DNA of 18,274 nt from an uncultured Lachnospiraceae bacterium. GTDB lineage: Bacteria > Bacillota > Clostridia > Lachnospirales > Lachnospiraceae. The stretch covers positions 1 to 18,274 of the forward strand of contig CACXEL010000180.1 of NCBI GenBank assembly GCA_902766655.1, in the 5' to 3' direction. The position numbers and the translations under genes are program-made. A model generated the notes under the pieces. That model saw nothing but the letters and a program-made list of their open reading frames with translations, was not told the DNA's origin and did no database searches. Below, one piece after another: positions 6,018 to 16,198 of the stretch (its first letter is position 1; every line of letters begins with the position of its first letter).

Positions 6018-6794
6018 TCAGGCGCCGACGGCGCTGTGGTAGGCCGCCATCTCCTCGATGAGGAAGGCCTCCGGGTCCTCCGGCATATCCATGGCGAGCG
6101 CAGCCCTTCTGGCCACTTCCACCGCGTCCTCCGCCGCCTTCACGGCCTCCTGGTCCATGGCGGTCTCCGCCATCTCCTCCCGGAACTTTTTCTCCGGACG
6201 GCTGATCCTGGACGCGCAGATGAAAGCCTGCCGCCTGGCCGGTGTCGGATCCAGGTCGTAGGCTTCCCTGAAGGAATGCAGCCCCTCCACAAAGAGCAGG
6301 AGCTTCATCTGGGCCACGCCCAGATTGTGCCAGATCCCGGCCCGCAGACTGTCCTCCATTGGCCCGGGTGCCTCGAGCAGGCTCCGGTAGCTCCGGATGG
6401 CCGAGGCATACTTGCCGCTCCGGACCAGGGAATCGCCCTTCAGCTTGAGCCGCTCGGGCACCGGAAGCTTCTTCATGTCGTCCAGCATCCGGGCATAATC
6501 GTTCATCTCGGCGTTGGTCATGTAGCCTGCTTCCAGGAAGATGGGCAAAATAAAATCCGCGACCCGCTTTTTGGCCCGCAGGGCCCTGCCCATATTCATG
6601 GCCAGACCGGTCAGCTTCAGCTCCTCCGCGACCCACCGGACAAGGTCCTCGTTCAGGATCGACGGGTCCAGGAGCGGCGCGTAGTTGGCCGCGTAATAGC
6701 AGAGCTCCTCCAGCGTGAAGATGCTGGTGCCGATATTTTCAATATAATAGGGGTTTTTCGCCGACCCCGTCCGGCAGAGAATATATCCGCTCAT
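6018..6794 (-). CDS. TPR-like protein of the DUF5717-DUF5716 operon
   Basis: 258 aa, cytoplasmic (no signal or membrane helix). A conserved-looking N-terminus, KNPYYIENIGTSIFTLEELCYY (residues 13-34), is followed by helices (50-108) and a TPR-like stretch at about 112-182, where KGDSLVRSGKYASAIRSYRSLL and HNLGVAQMKLLLFVEGLHSFREAYDLDP keep the A-G-Y-A and final-proline pattern of TPR units. The C-terminal 60 residues are acidic and predicted helical. I recognise the N-terminal pattern as that of uncharacterised Lachnospiraceae proteins encoded beside DUF5716 genes; this is from memory, not a search. It starts 3 nt after the DUF5716 stop, with GGGAG 7 nt upstream of the ATG, so it is the last gene of the operon. 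A protein-protein adaptor role is inferred; no enzymatic motif is visible. Confidence 0.85.
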   Translation of the reverse strand: MSGYILCRTGSAKNPYYIENIGTSIFTLEELCYYAANYAPLLDPSILNEDLVRWVAEELKLTGLAMNMGRALRAKKRVADFILPIFLEAGYMTNAEMNDYARMLDDMKKLPVPERLKLKGDSLVRSGKYASAIRSYRSLLEAPGPMEDSLRAGIWHNLGVAQMKLLLFVEGLHSFREAYDLDPTPARRQAFICASRISRPEKKFREEMAETAMDQEAVKAAEDAVEVARRAALAMDMPEDPEAFLIEEMAAYHSAVGA

Positions 6795-6797
6795 AGC

Positions 6798-8072
6798 TTA
6801 CTCCCATCCCTCCTCATTCTGGCCCCTGAGAGGAATCGTCATCCGCCAGATCTTATGGGTGGCCGGGAAGAAGGCTCCCAGTCCCAGGTCCTCCGCCTCC
6901 ACGTCACAGTGGTCCGCGGACACACAGGAGACCGACAGCGCGATCCTGGTCGCCTTGGGCGGCCGTTTGGGAAGACCGGTAAGCGGAAGCTCAACGGAGG
7001 CCTCGTTCATGCCGGCCAGGTCGGTGGTGACAAAGGTGAGTGTGTCACCTTCCGCCAGGAGGAGCTCGCAGCCCGCCGCGCTCTCATACCAGTTGACGCC
7101 GGCGGTGATCAGGGGATAGCGGACAGGTTTTCCGCCGTCCGTCACCTCTATGGCTACATTGGTCTCGATCAGGTCCTCGCTCATGTAGAGCCGGCCGCGC
7201 ATGTTCTGGTTCTCCCTGCGGGCCATGGCTGCATAGCAGGCGCCCTTGACGAAAAGGTTGTCTCCGTAGTAGACCCTGCGCCGGTCCTCCACCAGGAAGG
7301 AGACGGTCTGCTGCATTTTGGCCGGTTCAAAGCTGTTTCCGGCCAGGAGGATGCCCGAATACTCGTCGTCACCCAGGCTGGTGACGGCATACTCGCACAT
7401 TTCCAGGTCCCGGATGGCCTCGTCGCCGGAGAAGGTCAGGCTCCTCGCCGTAGTCAGGCGGACGGTGGAAGGTCTGGCGGCCCGGTCCTCCGTCAGGGCG
7501 TTGAAAGTGACTTCATTTTCCGAGATCCGGAAGAGGCCGATCCGTTTCTTCCAGAAATCCTGGCGCTGGGAGAAGGCGTAATAGTAAAAGCTCTCCATCT
7601 CGTTCTGGAGCAGGATCTGGTCCCGGGAGAAGCCCAGGGAGAGGAAGGCCTTCCTGAGATTCCTGACCAGGTCGCCCGTCAGGTGGGCGCTGGTCACCAT
7701 GATGGCCTCCACGCTCCGCACGATGGAGCTCAGGCCCAGGAGCTTCAGGGATTCCCTGAGAAAGACGGCCAGAAGATCGGCCGGCGAATAGGTCTCCCCG
7801 TCCACCTCCACGCCCTCGGTGCCGAGGGCGATGTCGTAAAGATTGTCGATGCAGATTCCCTTGTCCAGGGTGCCGAAGTAGCGGGCCTCCAGGCCGAAAT
7901 GCCAGTCCGACCTGCCTTTGACCTTCCCGAGGGCCGTGGGAAAGAGAAAGAGGTTGGTGCCCACCTTGGTCGGCACGCAGATCGGCTCGCAGGCTGTTCT
8001 GTCATAGTAGCAGATCTGGGAGCCTTCCCGGTTCAGTTCGAAGCCGATAAGAACGTTGGTCACTTCATTCAT
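6798..8072 (-). CDS. DUF5716-type protein, degenerate Hsp70/actin-like fold
   Basis: 424 aa, no signal peptide. The order of segments follows Hsp70: an N-terminal strand-turn-strand (VLIGFELNREGSQICYYD, 7-24), a strand-helix block like the one before the INEPTAAALAYG motif (IMVTSAHLTGDLVRNLRKAF then QILLQNEMESFYYYAF, 124-167), a strand pair (IGLFRISENEVTFNAL, 178-193), an adenosine-type motif (GILLAGNSFEP, 240-250) and VKGACYAA (275-282). Residues about 305-415 resemble the Hsp70 substrate-binding beta sandwich (LPLTGLPKRPPKATRIALSV). The phosphate-binding DxGTT and DxGGGT loops are absent, so normal ATP hydrolysis is doubtful. Start at 8072 is set by GGAGGAGG 6 nt upstream; it overlaps the DUF5717 stop by 8 nt (ATGAATGA), implying translational coupling. 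The DUF name is from memory; the Hsp70 reading is my inference. Confidence 0.82.
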   Translation of the reverse strand: MNEVTNVLIGFELNREGSQICYYDRTACEPICVPTKVGTNLFLFPTALGKVKGRSDWHFGLEARYFGTLDKGICIDNLYDIALGTEGVEVDGETYSPADLLAVFLRESLKLLGLSSIVRSVEAIMVTSAHLTGDLVRNLRKAFLSLGFSRDQILLQNEMESFYYYAFSQRQDFWKKRIGLFRISENEVTFNALTEDRAARPSTVRLTTARSLTFSGDEAIRDLEMCEYAVTSLGDDEYSGILLAGNSFEPAKMQQTVSFLVEDRRRVYYGDNLFVKGACYAAMARRENQNMRGRLYMSEDLIETNVAIEVTDGGKPVRYPLITAGVNWYESAAGCELLLAEGDTLTFVTTDLAGMNEASVELPLTGLPKRPPKATRIALSVSCVSADHCDVEAEDLGLGAFFPATHKIWRMTIPLRGQNEEGWE

Positions 8073-11000
8073 GGGCGGCCTCCTCCAGTTCAAAGAGCGA
8101 ATCGATCAGGGCGCGGGTGCGGACGTACTGGCCCATACGGTCGCGGAGCTCGTCCGCGCGGCCTTCATTTTTCTCATAGAGCATACGGTTTATGAGCTGA
8201 TAACGGCTGCGGCCATTCATGTCGATGGCGGGCGCCTGGGCGAATGCGACGTTCTGCCGCTCCTCCTCGTCCCCCTGGCGGATGGTCACGTAGTACTCCA
8301 GCACCTCCCCGTAGAAAAGGGTGAACTCGCGCGTGAAAATGCCGTCATAAATCTGGACCATAGGCTCGGAGGCGAACTCCTCCCCCGCGCCGGGACCGGC
8401 CATGCGGTAGTGGAGCGTCACGCCTGCATCCTCCCCGGCCCTCACCTCGACGATGACCTTGTCCTCCAGCTGGTACTGCCGGAGAAAGATGGCCGGCAGG
8501 TCCTGGAGGAAACGGAAGCGGAGCCCCTTCTCGGCGGCGTCCTCCATGAGGACGTCCACCTGGTTCTCCTCCCGGGCGGTCAGCTCCTTCTGTACGGAAT
8601 AATACTTGAGCAGGGCCAGGCGGCAGATGAGGGGCATTTCACGTTCCCGGTCCATCATGCGGGCGAGCTCTGAGGCTGTGTAGGGAGAGACGGTCTTGTC
8701 CGCCAGGAAGGTGGTCTCGGATTCAAAGGCGATGTAGCGGGCCGCCAGCTCATCCCGGCCGGCCACGCGCACATAATACTGAAGGATCTCACCGCCCTCG
8801 GTGGGCACCTGGCGGACAAATAGGGCGCGCTCCAGGATCCGCTCGTCGATGGGGAAGGTCTCCATCTCGAAGCTCCTCGCCCGCCGGCGGACGGCCAGCA
8901 TCTCCTTCAGCGTGGTGTCGGTGTGCTCGACAAGATAGCTCAGCATGTTCTCATCGTACTTGCCAAGGCGGAAAACATGGAGAGCCAGAGCCTGTAGGTC
9001 CGGATTGCCCTCGCCGTCAGCCTTCACCAGGCGGCTGGTCAGCCTCACGAGCAGGTCGGGGGCTATATTTTCAAAGCCGTAGGTGCGGAGCATGTCGAAA
9101 GCTTCCCCGTCGAAGCCGCGGCGGATCAGGACCTCAACGAGGGTCGTCCGGTCGGCCATGGCGAACGCGTCCAGGTCCACGCCCTTCAGGAAGCTGTCCA
9201 GGGCCTCGCTTTCCGCATTGTCCCTGGCGAAGGCCAGGATCCTGGCACGAAGGCCGCTCCTGAATTCATCAGTGAAGGCAGCGGACCTCTCCATGCGGCT
9301 GAAGTATCCCAGGCGGGCTGCGTCGAGCGGCAGGAGGCCGGCGGAGCCGCTGCAGAGCCTGAGCAGAAGACCGGGAGAAGAGGCACCCTTGCCCGCACAG
9401 ACCGGGGCGAGCCGGACGGTGTCCATCAGAGGCTTCACCGAGCAGGATACCCTGGAGGCGCTTCGCCGGCCAAGGGCATCCGCGAAAAGGATCCGGCAGT
9501 CATCGACGTAACAGGGCAGATAGGCTGTCCCGTTGCTCATGGAGACCTTCACTTCACCGTTCAGGGCGTCGTGGCATACGATTGCCTCGCGCGGGGTGGG
9601 GTCGTCCGTATAGATCTGACAGGTAAAGAGGATGTCAGCCAGCTCCCGCACCCGTCCCCGGGCGATCAGGGCGTCCGCAAAGGCCTGGTAAATGACGGCA
9701 TAGTCGGCGTTGATCCTTCCCCGTTCCAGAGAGATGCCGGCGAACTCCTCCATAAGGGACTCGTAGACGCTGTAGGTCGCCGCGTCCGCCTCCCGGTTCC
9801 GGATGATGTTGGCGTAGAGGAGAGCCGTCTTGCTCTCGGAAAGCTCCCCGCCCATGGCGAAATACTTGCGGACAGGCAGCGGCAGGATCCGCTGGTAGTT
9901 GTCCGGCAGGGTCTCGACGTAGAACTCAAAGAGCCGGGTGATGCGGAGGTCATACTCGATGGCCAGAGAGTACCAGCGGTGGTATTCGGGCCTGCCGGGC
10001 TTTCCCTTCACGATGAGCCGGCAGATGGCCAGGACGATATCCGGCCCGGGATAGGCCTCGTAGCAGGCCGTCAGGATCTGATAGGTGCTCTCCCGGAAGG
10101 TCTTTTCGTTGTCTGCAAGGAGGGCCGTACGGAGTGCGATATCCTCCGTCAGCATGCCCTGACGCACGGCAAAGGAAAGCACCTGGCGGGTAAACGGTGT
10201 CAGCCGTCTGAGCCTGGAGGTATCCTGCTGGATCAGCAGAAGGGCCTCCATATAGAGGTAGGGCGAACGGATCCCCCGCTCGAAGGCATCCTCCAGGTAG
10301 AACATTTTCTTGGTCTGGGTCCGGTTCATGTCCGGGTCGATCTGGAGCAGGATCCAGAGGAGCAGGAAGGACTCCTGATTTCTCCCGTACCAGCTCCGGA
10401 TGGTCTCCACGACGCTGAGCCGTCCGTCCGGCGCAAAGCCCGCTATATGGCAGAGGTAGAGGAAGAAAGCCCTGATCTCCATCGGTTGGCTGCGGAAGCT
10501 CCTTGCGGACAGTTCTTCCAGGGCCCGCCTCGTGCCGGCCCTGTCTCCGCTCACCTCCAGCACCCACGCTTCCTTGAGCTCGCACACGAAGGGATCCTCC
10601 CCCATGCGCCTGGCTTCCCCGATCAGGGAGAGGGAATCCGCGGCCCACCGGCCGACCTCGATCCTGCCGGCCAGGTAGTCCATGTGCTTTCTGGCCAGCT
10701 TGACCCGCTGGACGCGGACCAGGTGGGCCAGGTCCACCTTGACCGCCCCGTTCCGGGAGGCGGCGACAGTATACTCTATGGTCTGGTAGAAGGAACGGAG
10801 GATGATCCTTCCGAACCTGCGGCCGCTGCCCAGCTTTTCCTGCTGGACGATATAGGGCAGCTCGAAGACCGAGCCGTTGAAGTCCTCCCCAGTGAGTCTC
10901 CGGCGGTCGACCCGCAGGAAATCACCGTCCACAGTGACGTCTATTTCGAGATTTCCCCAGGTACTCCGCCTGAGGAAGATCTTCTGCTGCATGGAGTAGG

Positions 11001-11619
11001 TGACATTGTAGAAGGACGCGCCGGTCCCTTCCGCGGTCAGCATGACGGGCTCTTTGAGGCCGGCGGCCACCAGGAACTCCTCCATTCTCTGATAGGTGAC
11101 CGGATGGTCCGTGAGACCCCTGTAGAGGGCCGGGATGGAAGGACCTCCCGTCTCCGCCAGCCTGAGAAAGCCGGGGGATGTGAAGAGGCGGTATGCCTCC
11201 TGGTAGTCATTTTTAGCCAGCTCCGTAAAGGCGTAGAGGTCCGCGATGACTCCCTGGGAAGTGTCGGGCTGGACCGGCCGCTTTCTGACCCGGACCGGGA
11301 GCTCATACTCCCCGAGGCTGGAGGAAAAAGTGACCGTTCCCTCCGCCGACTCGCCGGGCATGAGACCGCTTACGTCCACGGTGACGTCCACCTCAGCGGA
11401 AGAGGTGACTATGGACGTTTCCGACACCCGGATGCGGACGTTGTCCGGCACGAGGAGGGTCTTGAAGCGGACACCCTCTGCCGAGCGCACCCTTACCGTG
11501 GCATTGAACAGCCCGTTCTCCCCGGCGCTTCCCTCCAGGAAGGCCGGCTCCAGAATAAGGTCCGATTTCACGCCTTCCTCATAGCTTAAGTCCATGCTGA
11601 TACCAGTCGTTCTGATCAC
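8065..11619 (-). CDS. DUF5717-type large beta/alpha-solenoid protein
   Basis: About 1184 aa, cytoplasmic by lack of signal or membrane helices. N-terminal ~115 residues look like an Ig-like beta sandwich (FNATVRVRSAEGVRF, EGTVTFSSSLGEYELPVRV). After a short helical part comes a second beta module (about 205-300), then a long run of helical pairs (about 305-685 and again about 770-1050) typical of an alpha-solenoid, interrupted near 690-735 by a short beta segment, and near the C-terminus another beta module (about 1055-1130, VEVRAGEDAGVTLHYRM) and a last helix. No catalytic motif seen. I recognise it as the DUF5717 type, which I recall next to DUF5716 in Lachnospiraceae. Start: GTG 11619 lies 8 nt after AGAGGTG; the in-frame GTG at 11628 is only 1 nt from AGAGG and ATG 11595 has no ribosome binding site. 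First gene of the three-gene operon; a scaffold role is inferred. Confidence 0.82.
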   Translation of the reverse strand: MIRTTGISMDLSYEEGVKSDLILEPAFLEGSAGENGLFNATVRVRSAEGVRFKTLLVPDNVRIRVSETSIVTSSAEVDVTVDVSGLMPGESAEGTVTFSSSLGEYELPVRVRKRPVQPDTSQGVIADLYAFTELAKNDYQEAYRLFTSPGFLRLAETGGPSIPALYRGLTDHPVTYQRMEEFLVAAGLKEPVMLTAEGTGASFYNVTYSMQQKIFLRRSTWGNLEIDVTVDGDFLRVDRRRLTGEDFNGSVFELPYIVQQEKLGSGRRFGRIILRSFYQTIEYTVAASRNGAVKVDLAHLVRVQRVKLARKHMDYLAGRIEVGRWAADSLSLIGEARRMGEDPFVCELKEAWVLEVSGDRAGTRRALEELSARSFRSQPMEIRAFFLYLCHIAGFAPDGRLSVVETIRSWYGRNQESFLLLWILLQIDPDMNRTQTKKMFYLEDAFERGIRSPYLYMEALLLIQQDTSRLRRLTPFTRQVLSFAVRQGMLTEDIALRTALLADNEKTFRESTYQILTACYEAYPGPDIVLAICRLIVKGKPGRPEYHRWYSLAIEYDLRITRLFEFYVETLPDNYQRILPLPVRKYFAMGGELSESKTALLYANIIRNREADAATYSVYESLMEEFAGISLERGRINADYAVIYQAFADALIARGRVRELADILFTCQIYTDDPTPREAIVCHDALNGEVKVSMSNGTAYLPCYVDDCRILFADALGRRSASRVSCSVKPLMDTVRLAPVCAGKGASSPGLLLRLCSGSAGLLPLDAARLGYFSRMERSAAFTDEFRSGLRARILAFARDNAESEALDSFLKGVDLDAFAMADRTTLVEVLIRRGFDGEAFDMLRTYGFENIAPDLLVRLTSRLVKADGEGNPDLQALALHVFRLGKYDENMLSYLVEHTDTTLKEMLAVRRRARSFEMETFPIDERILERALFVRQVPTEGGEILQYYVRVAGRDELAARYIAFESETTFLADKTVSPYTASELARMMDREREMPLICRLALLKYYSVQKELTAREENQVDVLMEDAAEKGLRFRFLQDLPAIFLRQYQLEDKVIVEVRAGEDAGVTLHYRMAGPGAGEEFASEPMVQIYDGIFTREFTLFYGEVLEYYVTIRQGDEEERQNVAFAQAPAIDMNGRSRYQLINRMLYEKNEGRADELRDRMGQYVRTRALIDSLFELEEAAHE

Positions 11620-11659
11620 GATCCCCACACCTCTTTATCCAAGTCAACATTTCGGAAAT

Positions 11660-11866: not shown

Positions 11867-14800
11867 TCACACCAGGTCAAAAAGAGAGATCTGGTTGGTC
11901 TCCGGAATGTCGCCCAGGATCCCCAGCCTGTCCATGAGGTCCACCAGGGTCTGGGAGACCTTGGCCCGGCTCTTTAAGTCGTCCTTGGAGAGGAAGGGAC
12001 CGGCCTTGGCGGCCTCCTCGATCTGGGCCGCGACGGACTCGCCCAGGCCGGCGATGGAGTTGATGGAAGGCATTAATTTCCCGTCAAGGATGGAGAAGGC
12101 TGTTGCCTTTGCCCGGTAGAGGTCCAGGCGGTGGAACTCGAAGCCACGGGCGTACATCTCGCGGACGATCATCATGTCCTTGAGCATTTCCTCCTCCTTT
12201 GGGGACTTCTCTTCCTTCTTTGTCACCTCCGCGCAGATTTCCTCCATATATTCCCAGCCCTGGGCCATGATCTCATAGTCGAAGGTGGTCACGCGGATGG
12301 AGAACATGGCAGCGTAGTAGGCCAGCGGATAATTGATCTTGTAGTAGGCGATGCGGAAGGCGTTCATGACGTAGGCCGCCGCGTGGGCCTTGGGGAACAT
12401 ATACTTGCTCCGCTTGCAGGACTCGATATACCAGTCGGGCACGCCGTGCTCCCGCATCTCCGCCTCCTGGTCGGGCTTCAAGCCCTTGCCCTTGCGGACA
12501 GCCTCCATGATCTTGAAGCTGTGCTCCGGCTCCACGCCCCAGGCGATCAGGTTCAGCATGATGTCGTCGCGCGTACAGATGGCCGTGGAAAGGGTGCAGT
12601 CTCCGTTCTGGATAAAGTACTGGGCGTTGCCCAGCCACACGTCGGTCCCGTGGGAGAGGCCGGAGATGCGGATGAGCTCCGAAAAGCTGGCAGGCTTCGT
12701 GTCGCGGAGCATGCCCATGACGAAGTTGGTGCCGAACTCGGGCACGCCGAGAACGCCAAGGTCGACACCCATCTTGTCCGGTGTGACCCCAAGGGCCTCC
12801 GTTCCGGTAAATAAGGACAGCACGCCCGGATCGTCCAGCGGGACCTCCAGGGGATTGGTGCCCGTCAGATCCTCCAGCATGCGGATGATGGTCGGATCAT
12901 CGTGCCCGAGGATATCGAGCTTTAAGAGGTTCCTGTCGATGGAGTGGTAGTCGAAGTGGGTGGTGATGATGTCGGTGGTCATGTCGTTGGCCGGGTGCTG
13001 GCCTGTGGTCCGGCGGACGCCGACGCAGCCCTCAGCCAGACGCGTGAGCTCACAGTCTTTTTTGGAAACGCCCTTGTCCTCGAAGTAGTGCCGTGCCAGG
13101 CCGTAGGCGGTCTTCTCCGCCACCGTGCCGATGGTACCGGCCTTGAAGGTCTGCCCCTTGCCGAAGATGACCTCTGTGTAGGCCTGGGCCACGCCCTGCT
13201 CATCCCCGGAGAAGTTGAGATCGATGTCCGGCTCCTTGTCGCCCTTGAAGCCCAGGAAGGTCTCGAAGGGGATGTCGAAGCCCATCTTTTTGAGCGGCGC
13301 GCCGCAGACCGGGCATGCCCTGTCCGGCATGTCCACGCCGCAGCGGCCGCCGTAGGCCTTGACTTCCTCCGAATCAAAATCCACATAGTGGCATTCTCCG
13401 CAGAGGTAATGCGGCGGCAGCGGGTTGACCTCGGTGATGTTGGACATGGTGGCGGCCAGGGAAGATCCGACGGATCCCCGGGAGCCCACCAGGTAGCCGT
13501 CCTCCCTGGACTTCTGGACCAGGCGCTGGGCGATGATGTACATGACCGCGTAGCCGTTGCCGATGATGGAGTTCAGCTCCTTGTTGAGCCGGTCCATGAC
13601 CTGGTGGGGCACCGGGTCCCCGTAGATCTTTCTGGCTGTGTCATAACACATCTCCCGCAGCTCGACGTCCGAGTTCTCGATGACCGGCGGGCACTTGTCC
13701 GGATGGATGGGGGAGATCTGCTCGATCCAGCCAGCCACCAGGTTCGTATTTTTCACGACCACCTCGAAGGCCTTGTCGGCTCCCAGATAGCTGAATTCCT
13801 CCAGCATCTCCTCCGTGGTGTGAAGGTAGAGGGGCGGCTGCTCCTCGTCCTTGTAGCCGTGTCCCGACTGGATGATGCTCCGGTAGATGGCATCCTCGGG
13901 ATTGAGGAAATGCACGTCGCAGGTGGCCACGCAGGGCTTCCCGAAGTCGTCCGCCAGCTTCACGATCCTTTTGTTGATGGCCCGGATATCGTCGTCGGTC
14001 CGGATCCCCTTGACCTGTTCGCGGACCATGTACTCGTTGTTCCCGACAGGCTGGACCTCCAGGTAGTCGTAGAAATTGACGATCCTGGCGATCTGCGCGG
14101 CCGGCTTGTCGTCCATGAGGGCAATGAAGAGCTCACCTGCCGAGCAGGCCGATCCCAGGATGAGCCCCTCACGGTGTTCGATGAGGAGGGATCTGGGAAT
14201 GCGTGGCCTCTTTTTGAAGTACTTGAGGTGGGACTCGGAGACCAGGGTGTAGAGGTTCCGCCTGCCCTGCTCGTTCTTCGCCAGAAGGATAATGTGGTAG
14301 TAAGGCAGGTTCCGGATCCGCTCCTCGGACACCATGCCGCGGCTGTTCAGCTCGGCGTAGGTGGTGATGCCCTGCCGTTTCATCTCGTCGAGGAGGAGCT
14401 TGTGGATCTCCACCATGGTGAGGGCCCGCTCGCCGGCCCGTTTTGGATCCAGGCAGGGAACCTTGAGAGACTTGGCCAGCTTGTCGAAGCTGCTGCGGCT
14501 GATGTGAGGCATAAGGAAACGCACGCAGGAGGGGATGTCCAGAAGAGTCCGCCTGTCGCCCTCGAAATCAAGGCCGGCCTTTTCGCAGGCCGCCTCCAGG
14601 AAAGCCGCATCCAGCCCGGCGTCGAAGCCCACCAGGGGCAGGCCGTCTATGAAGTCCAGGACCTTGTCCATGACCTCCTCAAGGAGCGGCGCCGATGCCG
14701 TGGCATTGTCCGTGATTCCCGTCTCGCGCTGGAAGGAGTAAGGCAGGGGCTTCTGGTGATTGATGAGGGTCGTGTAGCTGTCCGTTATGTTGCCCTTGAC

Positions 14801-16198
14801 CACCTTCTGAAGGCTGATCTCCGCCAGGTCGTCCTTGACGGGGCTGTGCCCCGTGGCCACGCAGGAGAAAATGACGACACTCCCCCTGACCTCCCCTTCG
14901 TCCGGCCCCTCGACCAGGTGGACCATATCGTCCACCAGGTAGCCCTCGCAGCCGTAGATCACCTTGAAGTCGGGATCCTTCTCGCTCGAAGTATGATGGG
15001 CCTCCGGGAAGGCCTGGACCACGCCGTGGTCGGTGATGGCCAGGGCTTTCATTCCCCAGCCCTTTGCCTGCTTTATGATGGAGGAGGCCGAGGAGACGGC
15101 ATCCATGTCGGACATCTTGGTATGGCAGTGGAGCTCAACACGCTTTTCCGGCGCATTGTCCACCCGCTTGTTCCGGAAGGCCCCGATCCGCTTGACCTCG
15201 AAGACATTCCGGACCATGACCTCCTTCTCGAAGGTGTCGAAGCTCATCATGCCCTTGACCATGAAGCAGGCCCCCTTGGTGAAGGTCTCCCGGAACCGGG
15301 GCGCCTCCTCCTGGGAATCGATCCACAGCTTCATGCGGATGCTGTCCGTATAGTCGGTCATGGACACGTTGAAAATGATCTTCCCGTTCTTCAGCTCCCG
15401 CTCTTCGGTCCCGAAGACCTCCCCGCGGAAGGTGACGACGTGGGGATCCTCGCCGAGTTCCACGATCGGCTGGGGCGGATCCCTGAACTCGCCCTTGCCG
15501 TAGACCACGTCCTTGTCATTGGAAATGAAGGCCTTCTGCTGCCGGAACTTCTTATCCGCCGCGTTGGGCAGCTTCTGGGGCTGGGCAGCGGTCTCCTCCT
15601 GCTTCTCTGCCCGGGCAACGGTCCGGCGGACCACCTCCCGGACGCGGGTGCCGATCCGCTCCTCGTCGGCGGCAAAAAAGCTGCCGGCCTTTTTCTCGGC
15701 GATTGTCACCTGAATGTCCAGGTCCCTGAACCCGGCGCGCTCGCAGAACACCTTCTCCAGATAATCGTAAATATGTTCCCGCATCTCGGAGGCCAGGAAG
15801 TTGTCGGCGATCTCCACCGTCACGGTCCTCTCGTCCGGGAAGTCCACGACGGCCTTCTTGAAGACCTGGTGGCAGAGCGGCATGACCTGCCCCAGCTCGA
15901 GCAGCATGCTGCTCCTGTAGTGGTGGTAAAAGTTCCTGGGCGTGTACTGGCGTGAAAGCCGGAACCGCTCCACGATCTTGACTTCCGTGTCCATCTTCCG
16001 GAAGGTCTGCCCGGCGATGGCCTCCTCCAGGTAGTAGATGACCTTCTTCTTGACCCAGCTGTCCGAGGAAATGTAGACTCTGAGCCGGGTCCTCGACTGG
16101 TTCATCGTGATCCGTTCCACGTACATCATGTCCGTGAGGTCCCGGACCTCCTCGCTGATCTCCAGCTTCGGAAAAGCTTCCGTAAACTTTTTAGTCAT
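11867..16198 (-). CDS. polC: DNA polymerase III alpha subunit, PolC type, with degenerate exonuclease
   Basis: 1443 aa, replicative C-family polymerase of Gram-positive bacteria. In order: N-terminal domains (1-210), OB fold (about 250-335), PHP domain (HCHTKMSD 357-364, TDHG 389-392), an inserted DnaQ-like exonuclease (about 437-607), rest of PHP, polymerase core with VGSRGSVGSS (904-913), Cys4 zinc module (CGEC 933-936, CPVC 962-965), catalytic PDIDLNFSGD (990-999), TTHFDYHSID (1079-1088), the C-terminal SIAGLG helix-hairpin-helix region and a final QISLFDLV, a plausible clamp-binding tail. Two oddities: the exonuclease has S445 and V447 in place of the Asp and Glu of DxETTG, and its third motif is KRAGER instead of HRAxxD; and TTGQHP (1064-1069) runs directly into ANDMTTD, lacking about 22 residues (GGIxVxP...) normal at this place. 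Start 16198 has GGAGG 4 nt upstream. Downstream of ispG, behind a terminator hairpin. Confidence 0.96.
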   Translation of the reverse strand: MTKKFTEAFPKLEISEEVRDLTDMMYVERITMNQSRTRLRVYISSDSWVKKKVIYYLEEAIAGQTFRKMDTEVKIVERFRLSRQYTPRNFYHHYRSSMLLELGQVMPLCHQVFKKAVVDFPDERTVTVEIADNFLASEMREHIYDYLEKVFCERAGFRDLDIQVTIAEKKAGSFFAADEERIGTRVREVVRRTVARAEKQEETAAQPQKLPNAADKKFRQQKAFISNDKDVVYGKGEFRDPPQPIVELGEDPHVVTFRGEVFGTEERELKNGKIIFNVSMTDYTDSIRMKLWIDSQEEAPRFRETFTKGACFMVKGMMSFDTFEKEVMVRNVFEVKRIGAFRNKRVDNAPEKRVELHCHTKMSDMDAVSSASSIIKQAKGWGMKALAITDHGVVQAFPEAHHTSSEKDPDFKVIYGCEGYLVDDMVHLVEGPDEGEVRGSVVIFSCVATGHSPVKDDLAEISLQKVVKGNITDSYTTLINHQKPLPYSFQRETGITDNATASAPLLEEVMDKVLDFIDGLPLVGFDAGLDAAFLEAACEKAGLDFEGDRRTLLDIPSCVRFLMPHISRSSFDKLAKSLKVPCLDPKRAGERALTMVEIHKLLLDEMKRQGITTYAELNSRGMVSEERIRNLPYYHIILLAKNEQGRRNLYTLVSESHLKYFKKRPRIPRSLLIEHREGLILGSACSAGELFIALMDDKPAAQIARIVNFYDYLEVQPVGNNEYMVREQVKGIRTDDDIRAINKRIVKLADDFGKPCVATCDVHFLNPEDAIYRSIIQSGHGYKDEEQPPLYLHTTEEMLEEFSYLGADKAFEVVVKNTNLVAGWIEQISPIHPDKCPPVIENSDVELREMCYDTARKIYGDPVPHQVMDRLNKELNSIIGNGYAVMYIIAQRLVQKSREDGYLVGSRGSVGSSLAATMSNITEVNPLPPHYLCGECHYVDFDSEEVKAYGGRCGVDMPDRACPVCGAPLKKMGFDIPFETFLGFKGDKEPDIDLNFSGDEQGVAQAYTEVIFGKGQTFKAGTIGTVAEKTAYGLARHYFEDKGVSKKDCELTRLAEGCVGVRRTTGQHPANDMTTDIITTHFDYHSIDRNLLKLDILGHDDPTIIRMLEDLTGTNPLEVPLDDPGVLSLFTGTEALGVTPDKMGVDLGVLGVPEFGTNFVMGMLRDTKPASFSELIRISGLSHGTDVWLGNAQYFIQNGDCTLSTAICTRDDIMLNLIAWGVEPEHSFKIMEAVRKGKGLKPDQEAEMREHGVPDWYIESCKRSKYMFPKAHAAAYVMNAFRIAYYKINYPLAYYAAMFSIRVTTFDYEIMAQGWEYMEEICAEVTKKEEKSPKEEEMLKDMMIVREMYARGFEFHRLDLYRAKATAFSILDGKLMPSINSIAGLGESVAAQIEEAAKAGPFLSKDDLKSRAKVSQTLVDLMDRLGILGDIPETNQISLFDLV

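What the first reader, a model, noticed from the sequence alone, without database searches (positions are those of the whole stretch)
14378..14890. PolC proofreading exonuclease has lost its catalytic residues
The inserted DnaQ-like domain (residues about 437-607) is full length and alignable: VATGHSPVKDDLAEI matches the ETTGxSPxxDxIIEI strand, LVGFDAGLDAAFL matches LVAHNASFDxxFL, and RFLMPHISRSSFDKLAKSLKV matches the RxLYPxLKxHxLDTLAKKLxV helix. Yet of the five residues that bind metal or activate water in this family, Asp and Glu of ExoI are S445 and V447, His and Asp of ExoIII are K586 and R591, and only the ExoII Asp (D530) remains. Flanking identity argues against a frameshift. Established knowledge: loss of these residues abolishes 3'-5' proofreading. 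Inference: the main replicase of this organism, if this is its only PolC, copies DNA without intrinsic proofreading, or another exonuclease acts in trans.
Basis: partly seen in the sequence, partly recalled or inferred. Interest (0 to 1): 0.85.

Follow-up and report, generated by a model that had tools for sequence, protein, structure and literature searches.

The report
Replicase with a dead proofreading domain
A whole group of gut bacteria carries a main DNA-copying enzyme whose usual error-correcting domain keeps its shape but has lost its working residues, while a second candidate error-correcting site in the same enzyme stays conserved.

Summary
The window encodes the only PolC found in its MAG (75.97% complete). 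Its DnaQ-like domain has S445, V447, K586, R591 where active PolCs have D, E, H, D; only D530 matches. In all 36 genus members readable at the five columns (of 42 genomes), 30 keep none and 6 keep one; 139 of 149 other loci of the family keep all five. The genus is one clade, support 99. The fold persists and new residues are conserved at old catalytic columns (V447 31/36, R591 33/38).
Best reading: proofreading moved from DnaQ to PHP; inferred, not shown.
A 2026 survey states that in Pol III it is PHP, not DnaQ, that is inactivated; this genus contradicts it.

The parts
11867..16198 (-). polC, PolC-type DNA polymerase III alpha subunit, 1443 aa
   Evidence: NF001688 1513.9 bits; Pfam PHP, DNA_pol3_alpha, RNase_T, DNA_pol3_finger
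14378..14887 (-). DnaQ-like insert, residues 438-607, fold kept, DEDDh site lost (S445, V447, D530, K586, R591)
   Evidence: alignment of 189 PolC rows; AlphaFold2 model and structural matches
14924..15151 (-). PHP domain, first part (residues 350-425), metal ligands H357, H359, D366, H391, E418
13844..14317 (-). PHP domain, second part (residues 628-785), metal ligands H635, C685, D761, H763
11870..13831 (-). polymerase core and C-terminus (residues 790-1443), catalytic D991, D993, D1095; a QISLF sequence near the C-terminus, recalled as the clamp-binding motif type
   Evidence: roles of the aspartates recalled
12992..13000 (-). place (QHP codons, residues 1067-1069) where 21 palm residues (63 nt) present in genus relatives are absent in frame. 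Suspected assembly or strain artefact

Best explanation
In the common ancestor of this genus (Lachnospiraceae by the titles of named relatives) the DnaQ-type proofreading domain of the replicase PolC lost its metal-binding residues (shown by comparison). The domain was kept as a folded, non-catalytic insert with a remodelled former active site (sequence conservation shown, purpose inferred). The DNA 3' end is probably edited instead by the PHP exonuclease site into which the DnaQ domain is inserted, helped by the PHP site of DnaE1 and by mismatch repair (inferred from conservation of all nine ligands, an intact DnaE1 PHP and the presence of MutS). So this is a pseudo-exonuclease inside a replicase that has probably moved its proofreading from DnaQ to PHP.
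Against: No activity was measured. The only PolC PHP tested that I found, from Geobacillus kaustophilus, showed no exonuclease activity (passages); it has Asn at ligand position 8 where this genus has Asp, but more than ligands may be needed. PHP ligands are intact in most PolCs of the family anyway (140 of 149 loci complete, 6 differ, 3 unreadable), so their conservation here is not special. The 'never both broken' pattern is not significant once kinship is counted (5 independent pairs, median p 1). PHP may be kept for structure. In more distant pairs exo dN/dS rises to 0.12-0.87 (synonymous sites near saturation; the printed list was cut), so part of the domain is under weak constraint. The KapD-like exonuclease is more frequent in the genus (39 of 42) than in the rest of the family (36 of 59), which favours the first rival. 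DnaE1 of the window's own genome is only a C-terminal fragment, its PHP unread, and no MutS was found there.
Confidence: 0.57

Rival explanations
1. A stand-alone DEDDh exonuclease proofreads in trans, for example the KapD/ERI-like protein (C399 in this genome) or an accessory DnaQ-like protein (C255).
For: C399 encodes a 332-aa protein whose sequence, read by eye, keeps D-x-E, the ExoII D and H-x4-D; C255 encodes a 197-aa DnaQ-like protein that also keeps them. The KapD-like protein is near-universal in the genus, 39 of 42, and less frequent outside it, 36 of 59.
Against: The closest models of the 174-aa core that I searched are an exonuclease and KapD, both far below cut-off, not an epsilon subunit. 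Of the 36 other family genomes that have it, none is among those whose main PolC I found dead or without the insert, so it is not tied to the loss. It was not found in G030 (97% complete). PF00929 proteins other than PolC and the KapD type occur in 5 of the 18 best genus genomes, by my reading of places and frame lengths.
Confidence: 0.18
2. The genus replicates without effective 3'-5' proofreading by PolC and tolerates it through mismatch repair: a natural, stable weak mutator.
For: DnaQ dead genus-wide; MutS kept in 41 of 42; polC GC3 unusually high (median 0.744 against 0.528), a possible but ambiguous trace of changed mutation bias.
Against: PHP ligands intact. In B. subtilis the strongest hypermutators came under selection for a lower mutation rate (passages of PMC11890065). 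GC is one clade's trait.
Confidence: 0.15
3. The window polC is a decaying or mis-assembled copy and a working PolC lies in the missing quarter of the genome.
For: MAG 75.97% complete; 21 palm residues absent from this copy alone; the contig of the nearest relative G040 ends at that place.
Against: The exo loss is genus-wide and so independent of this assembly; the one-contig genome G001 has one PolC and one DnaE1, with dead exo; neighbouring purA, purB and ispG match their models nearly end to end. It may be true of the palm gap, not of the exo loss.
Confidence: 0.06
4. The domain still cleaves with an unrecognised set of residues.
For: D/E526 in 37 of 38 and E/D530 in 24 of 38 leave acidic residues near the pocket.
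Against: ExoI E is gone in 36 of 36 rows and ExoI D in 34 of 36; ExoIII D is R, Q, K or L in 38 of 38; no alternative metal site is apparent.
Confidence: 0.04

Closest known systems
Canonical PolC (B. subtilis recalled; solved PolC 9qpc; other genera of the family)
   Same: Same domain order, NTD-OB-PHP with inserted DnaQ fold-polymerase; same fold over PHP and insert (TM 0.87 to 9qpc)
   Different: DEDDh residues lost across a genus
PolC without the exo insert, of Clostridia and Negativicutes (PMC3919608, section read)
   Same: PolC without a working DnaQ activity, paired with DnaE1
   Different: There the insert is missing; here it is kept, folded and constrained
PolA2/APEX and about half of Pol I orthologs with an inactive 3'-5' exonuclease domain (PMC12926913, passages and Discussion)
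   Same: A DnaQ-like domain kept as a vestige inside a polymerase
   Different: Those are family A polymerases; this is a Pol III alpha subunit
Mycobacterium tuberculosis DnaE1 (PMC5636811, passages)
   Same: Nine-ligand PHP site, there the proofreader
   Different: DnaE type, no DnaQ insert; PHP activity not shown for this PolC

Membership tests
PolC-type DNA polymerase III (NF001688) | Full-length match over the curated cut-off | tested here: met
   1513.9 bits against 873, residues 2-1441
PolC-type DNA polymerase III (NF001688) | Three catalytic polymerase aspartates | tested here: met
   D991, D993, D1095
PolC-type DNA polymerase III (NF001688) | Continuous palm between PDIDL and KLDILGHDD | tested here: not met
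   21 residues absent in the window copy; present in every genus relative readable there; possibly an assembly artefact. A second relative, G026, lacks 16 other palm residues
Active DEDDh (DnaQ-type) proofreading exonuclease | D-x-E, D, H-x4-D at the five columns | tested here: not met
   S, V, D, K, R
Active DEDDh (DnaQ-type) proofreading exonuclease | DnaQ fold | tested here: met
Active PHP exonuclease | Nine ligands HHDHEH[C/H]DH | tested here: met
   H357 H359 D366 H391 E418 H635 C685 D761 H763; definition from PMC12926913
Active PHP exonuclease | Measured Zn-dependent 3'-5' exonuclease | not testable with these tools
   Needs purified protein
PolC without the exo insert | DnaQ insert absent | tested here: not met
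   Insert present, about 170 residues

The most novel reading that the evidence does not exclude
A replicase that has switched proofreader within one polypeptide: the DnaQ domain became a non-catalytic part whose remodelled pocket (acidic 526 with Arg 591 in place of the metals) now guides the primer 3' end into, or regulates, the PHP exonuclease, so that a high-fidelity genus edits its genome by PHP alone.
Probability: 0.3. Interest if true: 0.82.

Novelty: new variant of a known kind. Interest (0 to 1): 0.62.

Why it matters
[quoted passage not shown] A genus with the opposite state is a direct counterexample and a natural experiment: it makes testable whether the PHP site of a PolC can carry replicative proofreading alone, which the one PolC PHP tested that I found (G. 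kaustophilus, inactive) could not show. It also shows that loss of DnaQ proofreading in a replicase can persist through a clade of at least 36 sampled genomes rather than being a short-lived mutator state.

Tried and rejected
Sequencing error or frameshift for the exo loss: rejected, the loss is genus-wide. A second intact polC: none found in the assembly or in one-contig G001; the missing quarter of G000 cannot be excluded. Loss of mismatch repair: MutS not found only in G000 itself, whose assembly is incomplete; MutL not tested. The 'at least one proofreader' rule as a statistical result: not significant after kinship. Spread beyond the family: 110 of 118 class-level genomes had a match; I read 70 of these loci (30 given, 40 fetched, chosen by me among matches that covered the insert; a few of them from the same family or order), left out those whose match began near residue 650 and a number of others, and found 69 with both sites intact and one (L319) masked at ExoIII. 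This sample cannot estimate how often the insert is absent. GC3 of polC is high in the genus; I draw no conclusion from it. Salt bridge D/E526-R591: the coordinates of the model are not readable here, so not tested. Whether the dead exo of L113, which falls near the genus in the tree (a neighbouring branch has support 18), shares the same loss event is open; its substitutions differ.

Print check: paper searches listed no paper that I could see to describe an inactivated DnaQ domain in a PolC; most listed papers I saw only as title and start of abstract, and the library lacks most subscription papers. Read: PMC12926913 sections 14 and 24 and passages; PMC3919608 section 14 and passages; passages of PMC5636811, PMC3666897, PMC11890065, PMC7281927; outline and abstract of PMC3774996.

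Rows dropped: tree 184 of 189 rows (short rows); fold from 60 rows, 34 genus and 25 family rows of my choice beside the window; distances without L043-L045.

Full report
WHAT IS THERE. The window is contig C180 of a metagenome-assembled genome, 2.86 Mb in 484 contigs, 75.97% complete, 4.14% contamination. polC lies on the minus strand at 11867-16198 and encodes 1443 aa, over the PolC cut-off (1513.9 bits against 873). That RUG names stand for rumen genomes is recalled.

THE EXO SITE. I compared 40 loci of the same genus (the window included; one per genome, of 42 genomes) with 149 loci from 148 other genomes of the family, drawn as one genome per genus code. Outside the genus 139 of 149 read D,E,D,H,D; three have substituted sites (L113, L235, L237), five lack the insert (L236, L238, L239, L240, and L241, a second copy in G106), two are fragments (L226, L234). 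Inside the genus 36 of 40 rows are readable at all five columns: 30 keep none and 6 keep one. Two more are readable in part and are not intact (L041, L044), and the split gene of G005 is also dead in its N-terminal ORF. In G008, G037 and G040 the contigs stop short of the domain. Further out, 69 of 70 class-level loci read had both sites intact, the remaining one being masked.

WHAT PROOFREADS INSTEAD. (a) PHP. The nine ligands are complete in the window and in 36 of 36 genus rows readable at all nine. DnaE1 has them too in 28 of 28 readable loci of 30 fetched: 26 by pattern, two by eye; the window genome's own DnaE1 is a C-terminal fragment. In M. tuberculosis DnaE1 this site is the proofreader (passages). 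In G. kaustophilus PolC it was inactive, with Asn at position 8; here it is Asp (passages). Over 182 rows none has both sites broken, but by independent pairs this is not significant, and PHP is intact in most PolCs anyway. (b) Stand-alone DEDDh proteins. G000 has two: C255, DnaQ-like, a type that is patchy in the genus, and C399, KapD/ERI-like, in 39 of 42 genus genomes and 36 of 59 others. (c) Mismatch repair: MutS in 41 of 42, all but G000. I judge (a) most likely, (b) the chief rival.

THE PALM GAP. The window copy lacks 21 residues that every genus relative readable there has; among the 189 rows the only other clean gap of this kind in the core is 16 residues in G026, including two catalytic aspartates (the rows with longer gaps are fragments or broken frames, a few others lack 4-7 scattered columns). 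The place lies at a short repeat (seen twice in L010), and the contig of the nearest relative G040 (96% identical in the C-terminal part) ends there. Neighbouring purA, purB and ispG match their models nearly end to end. As assembled, neither copy should polymerise (inference from recalled palm anatomy). Since polC is otherwise kept throughout the genus I suspect assembly or strain artefacts, but two in-frame cases among about 40 are unexplained.

LITERATURE. Timinskas et al. (authors recalled; PMC12926913, sections 14 and 24 read) call DnaQ domains active if DEDDh is intact, report three active proofreaders in most Clostridia, and write that in Pol III alpha subunits PHP is inactivated and not DnaQ. 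An earlier survey (PMC3919608, section read) reports PolCs without the insert (6%). I found no report of a kept but dead DnaQ insert in a PolC in the searches, within the limits told under Tried and rejected.

VERDICT. New variant of a known kind. The loss of the site is near certain from sequence; the switch to PHP is the best inference and awaits a bench test.

Noticed in passing
window 12992-13000 (and L006, G026): In-frame palm gaps: 21 residues in the window copy at a QHP repeat, 16 residues in G026 including two catalytic Asp; unexplained
   Followed up: partly
L047 (G020:C230:8500-13000): A compact PolC-like open frame of about 800 aa with a DnaQ domain in front of, not inside, a PHP domain, ending early at a TGA, in a genus member; perhaps from a mobile element
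   Followed up: partly
L241 (G106:C9): A second, divergent PolC copy without the exo insert beside a PolC with intact sites (L175) in the same genome
   Followed up: no
L213, L221, L227, L231, L232, L242: Six family PolCs with altered PHP ligands, all with intact DEDDh
   Followed up: partly
polC of the genus: polC GC3 is high (median 0.744 against 0.528 in the rest of the family; 7 of 149 family loci reach the genus median)
   Followed up: partly
window 6018-11628: Two adjacent proteins of unknown function (DUF5717 and DUF5716) and a TPR protein in a row downstream of polC on the same strand
   Followed up: no
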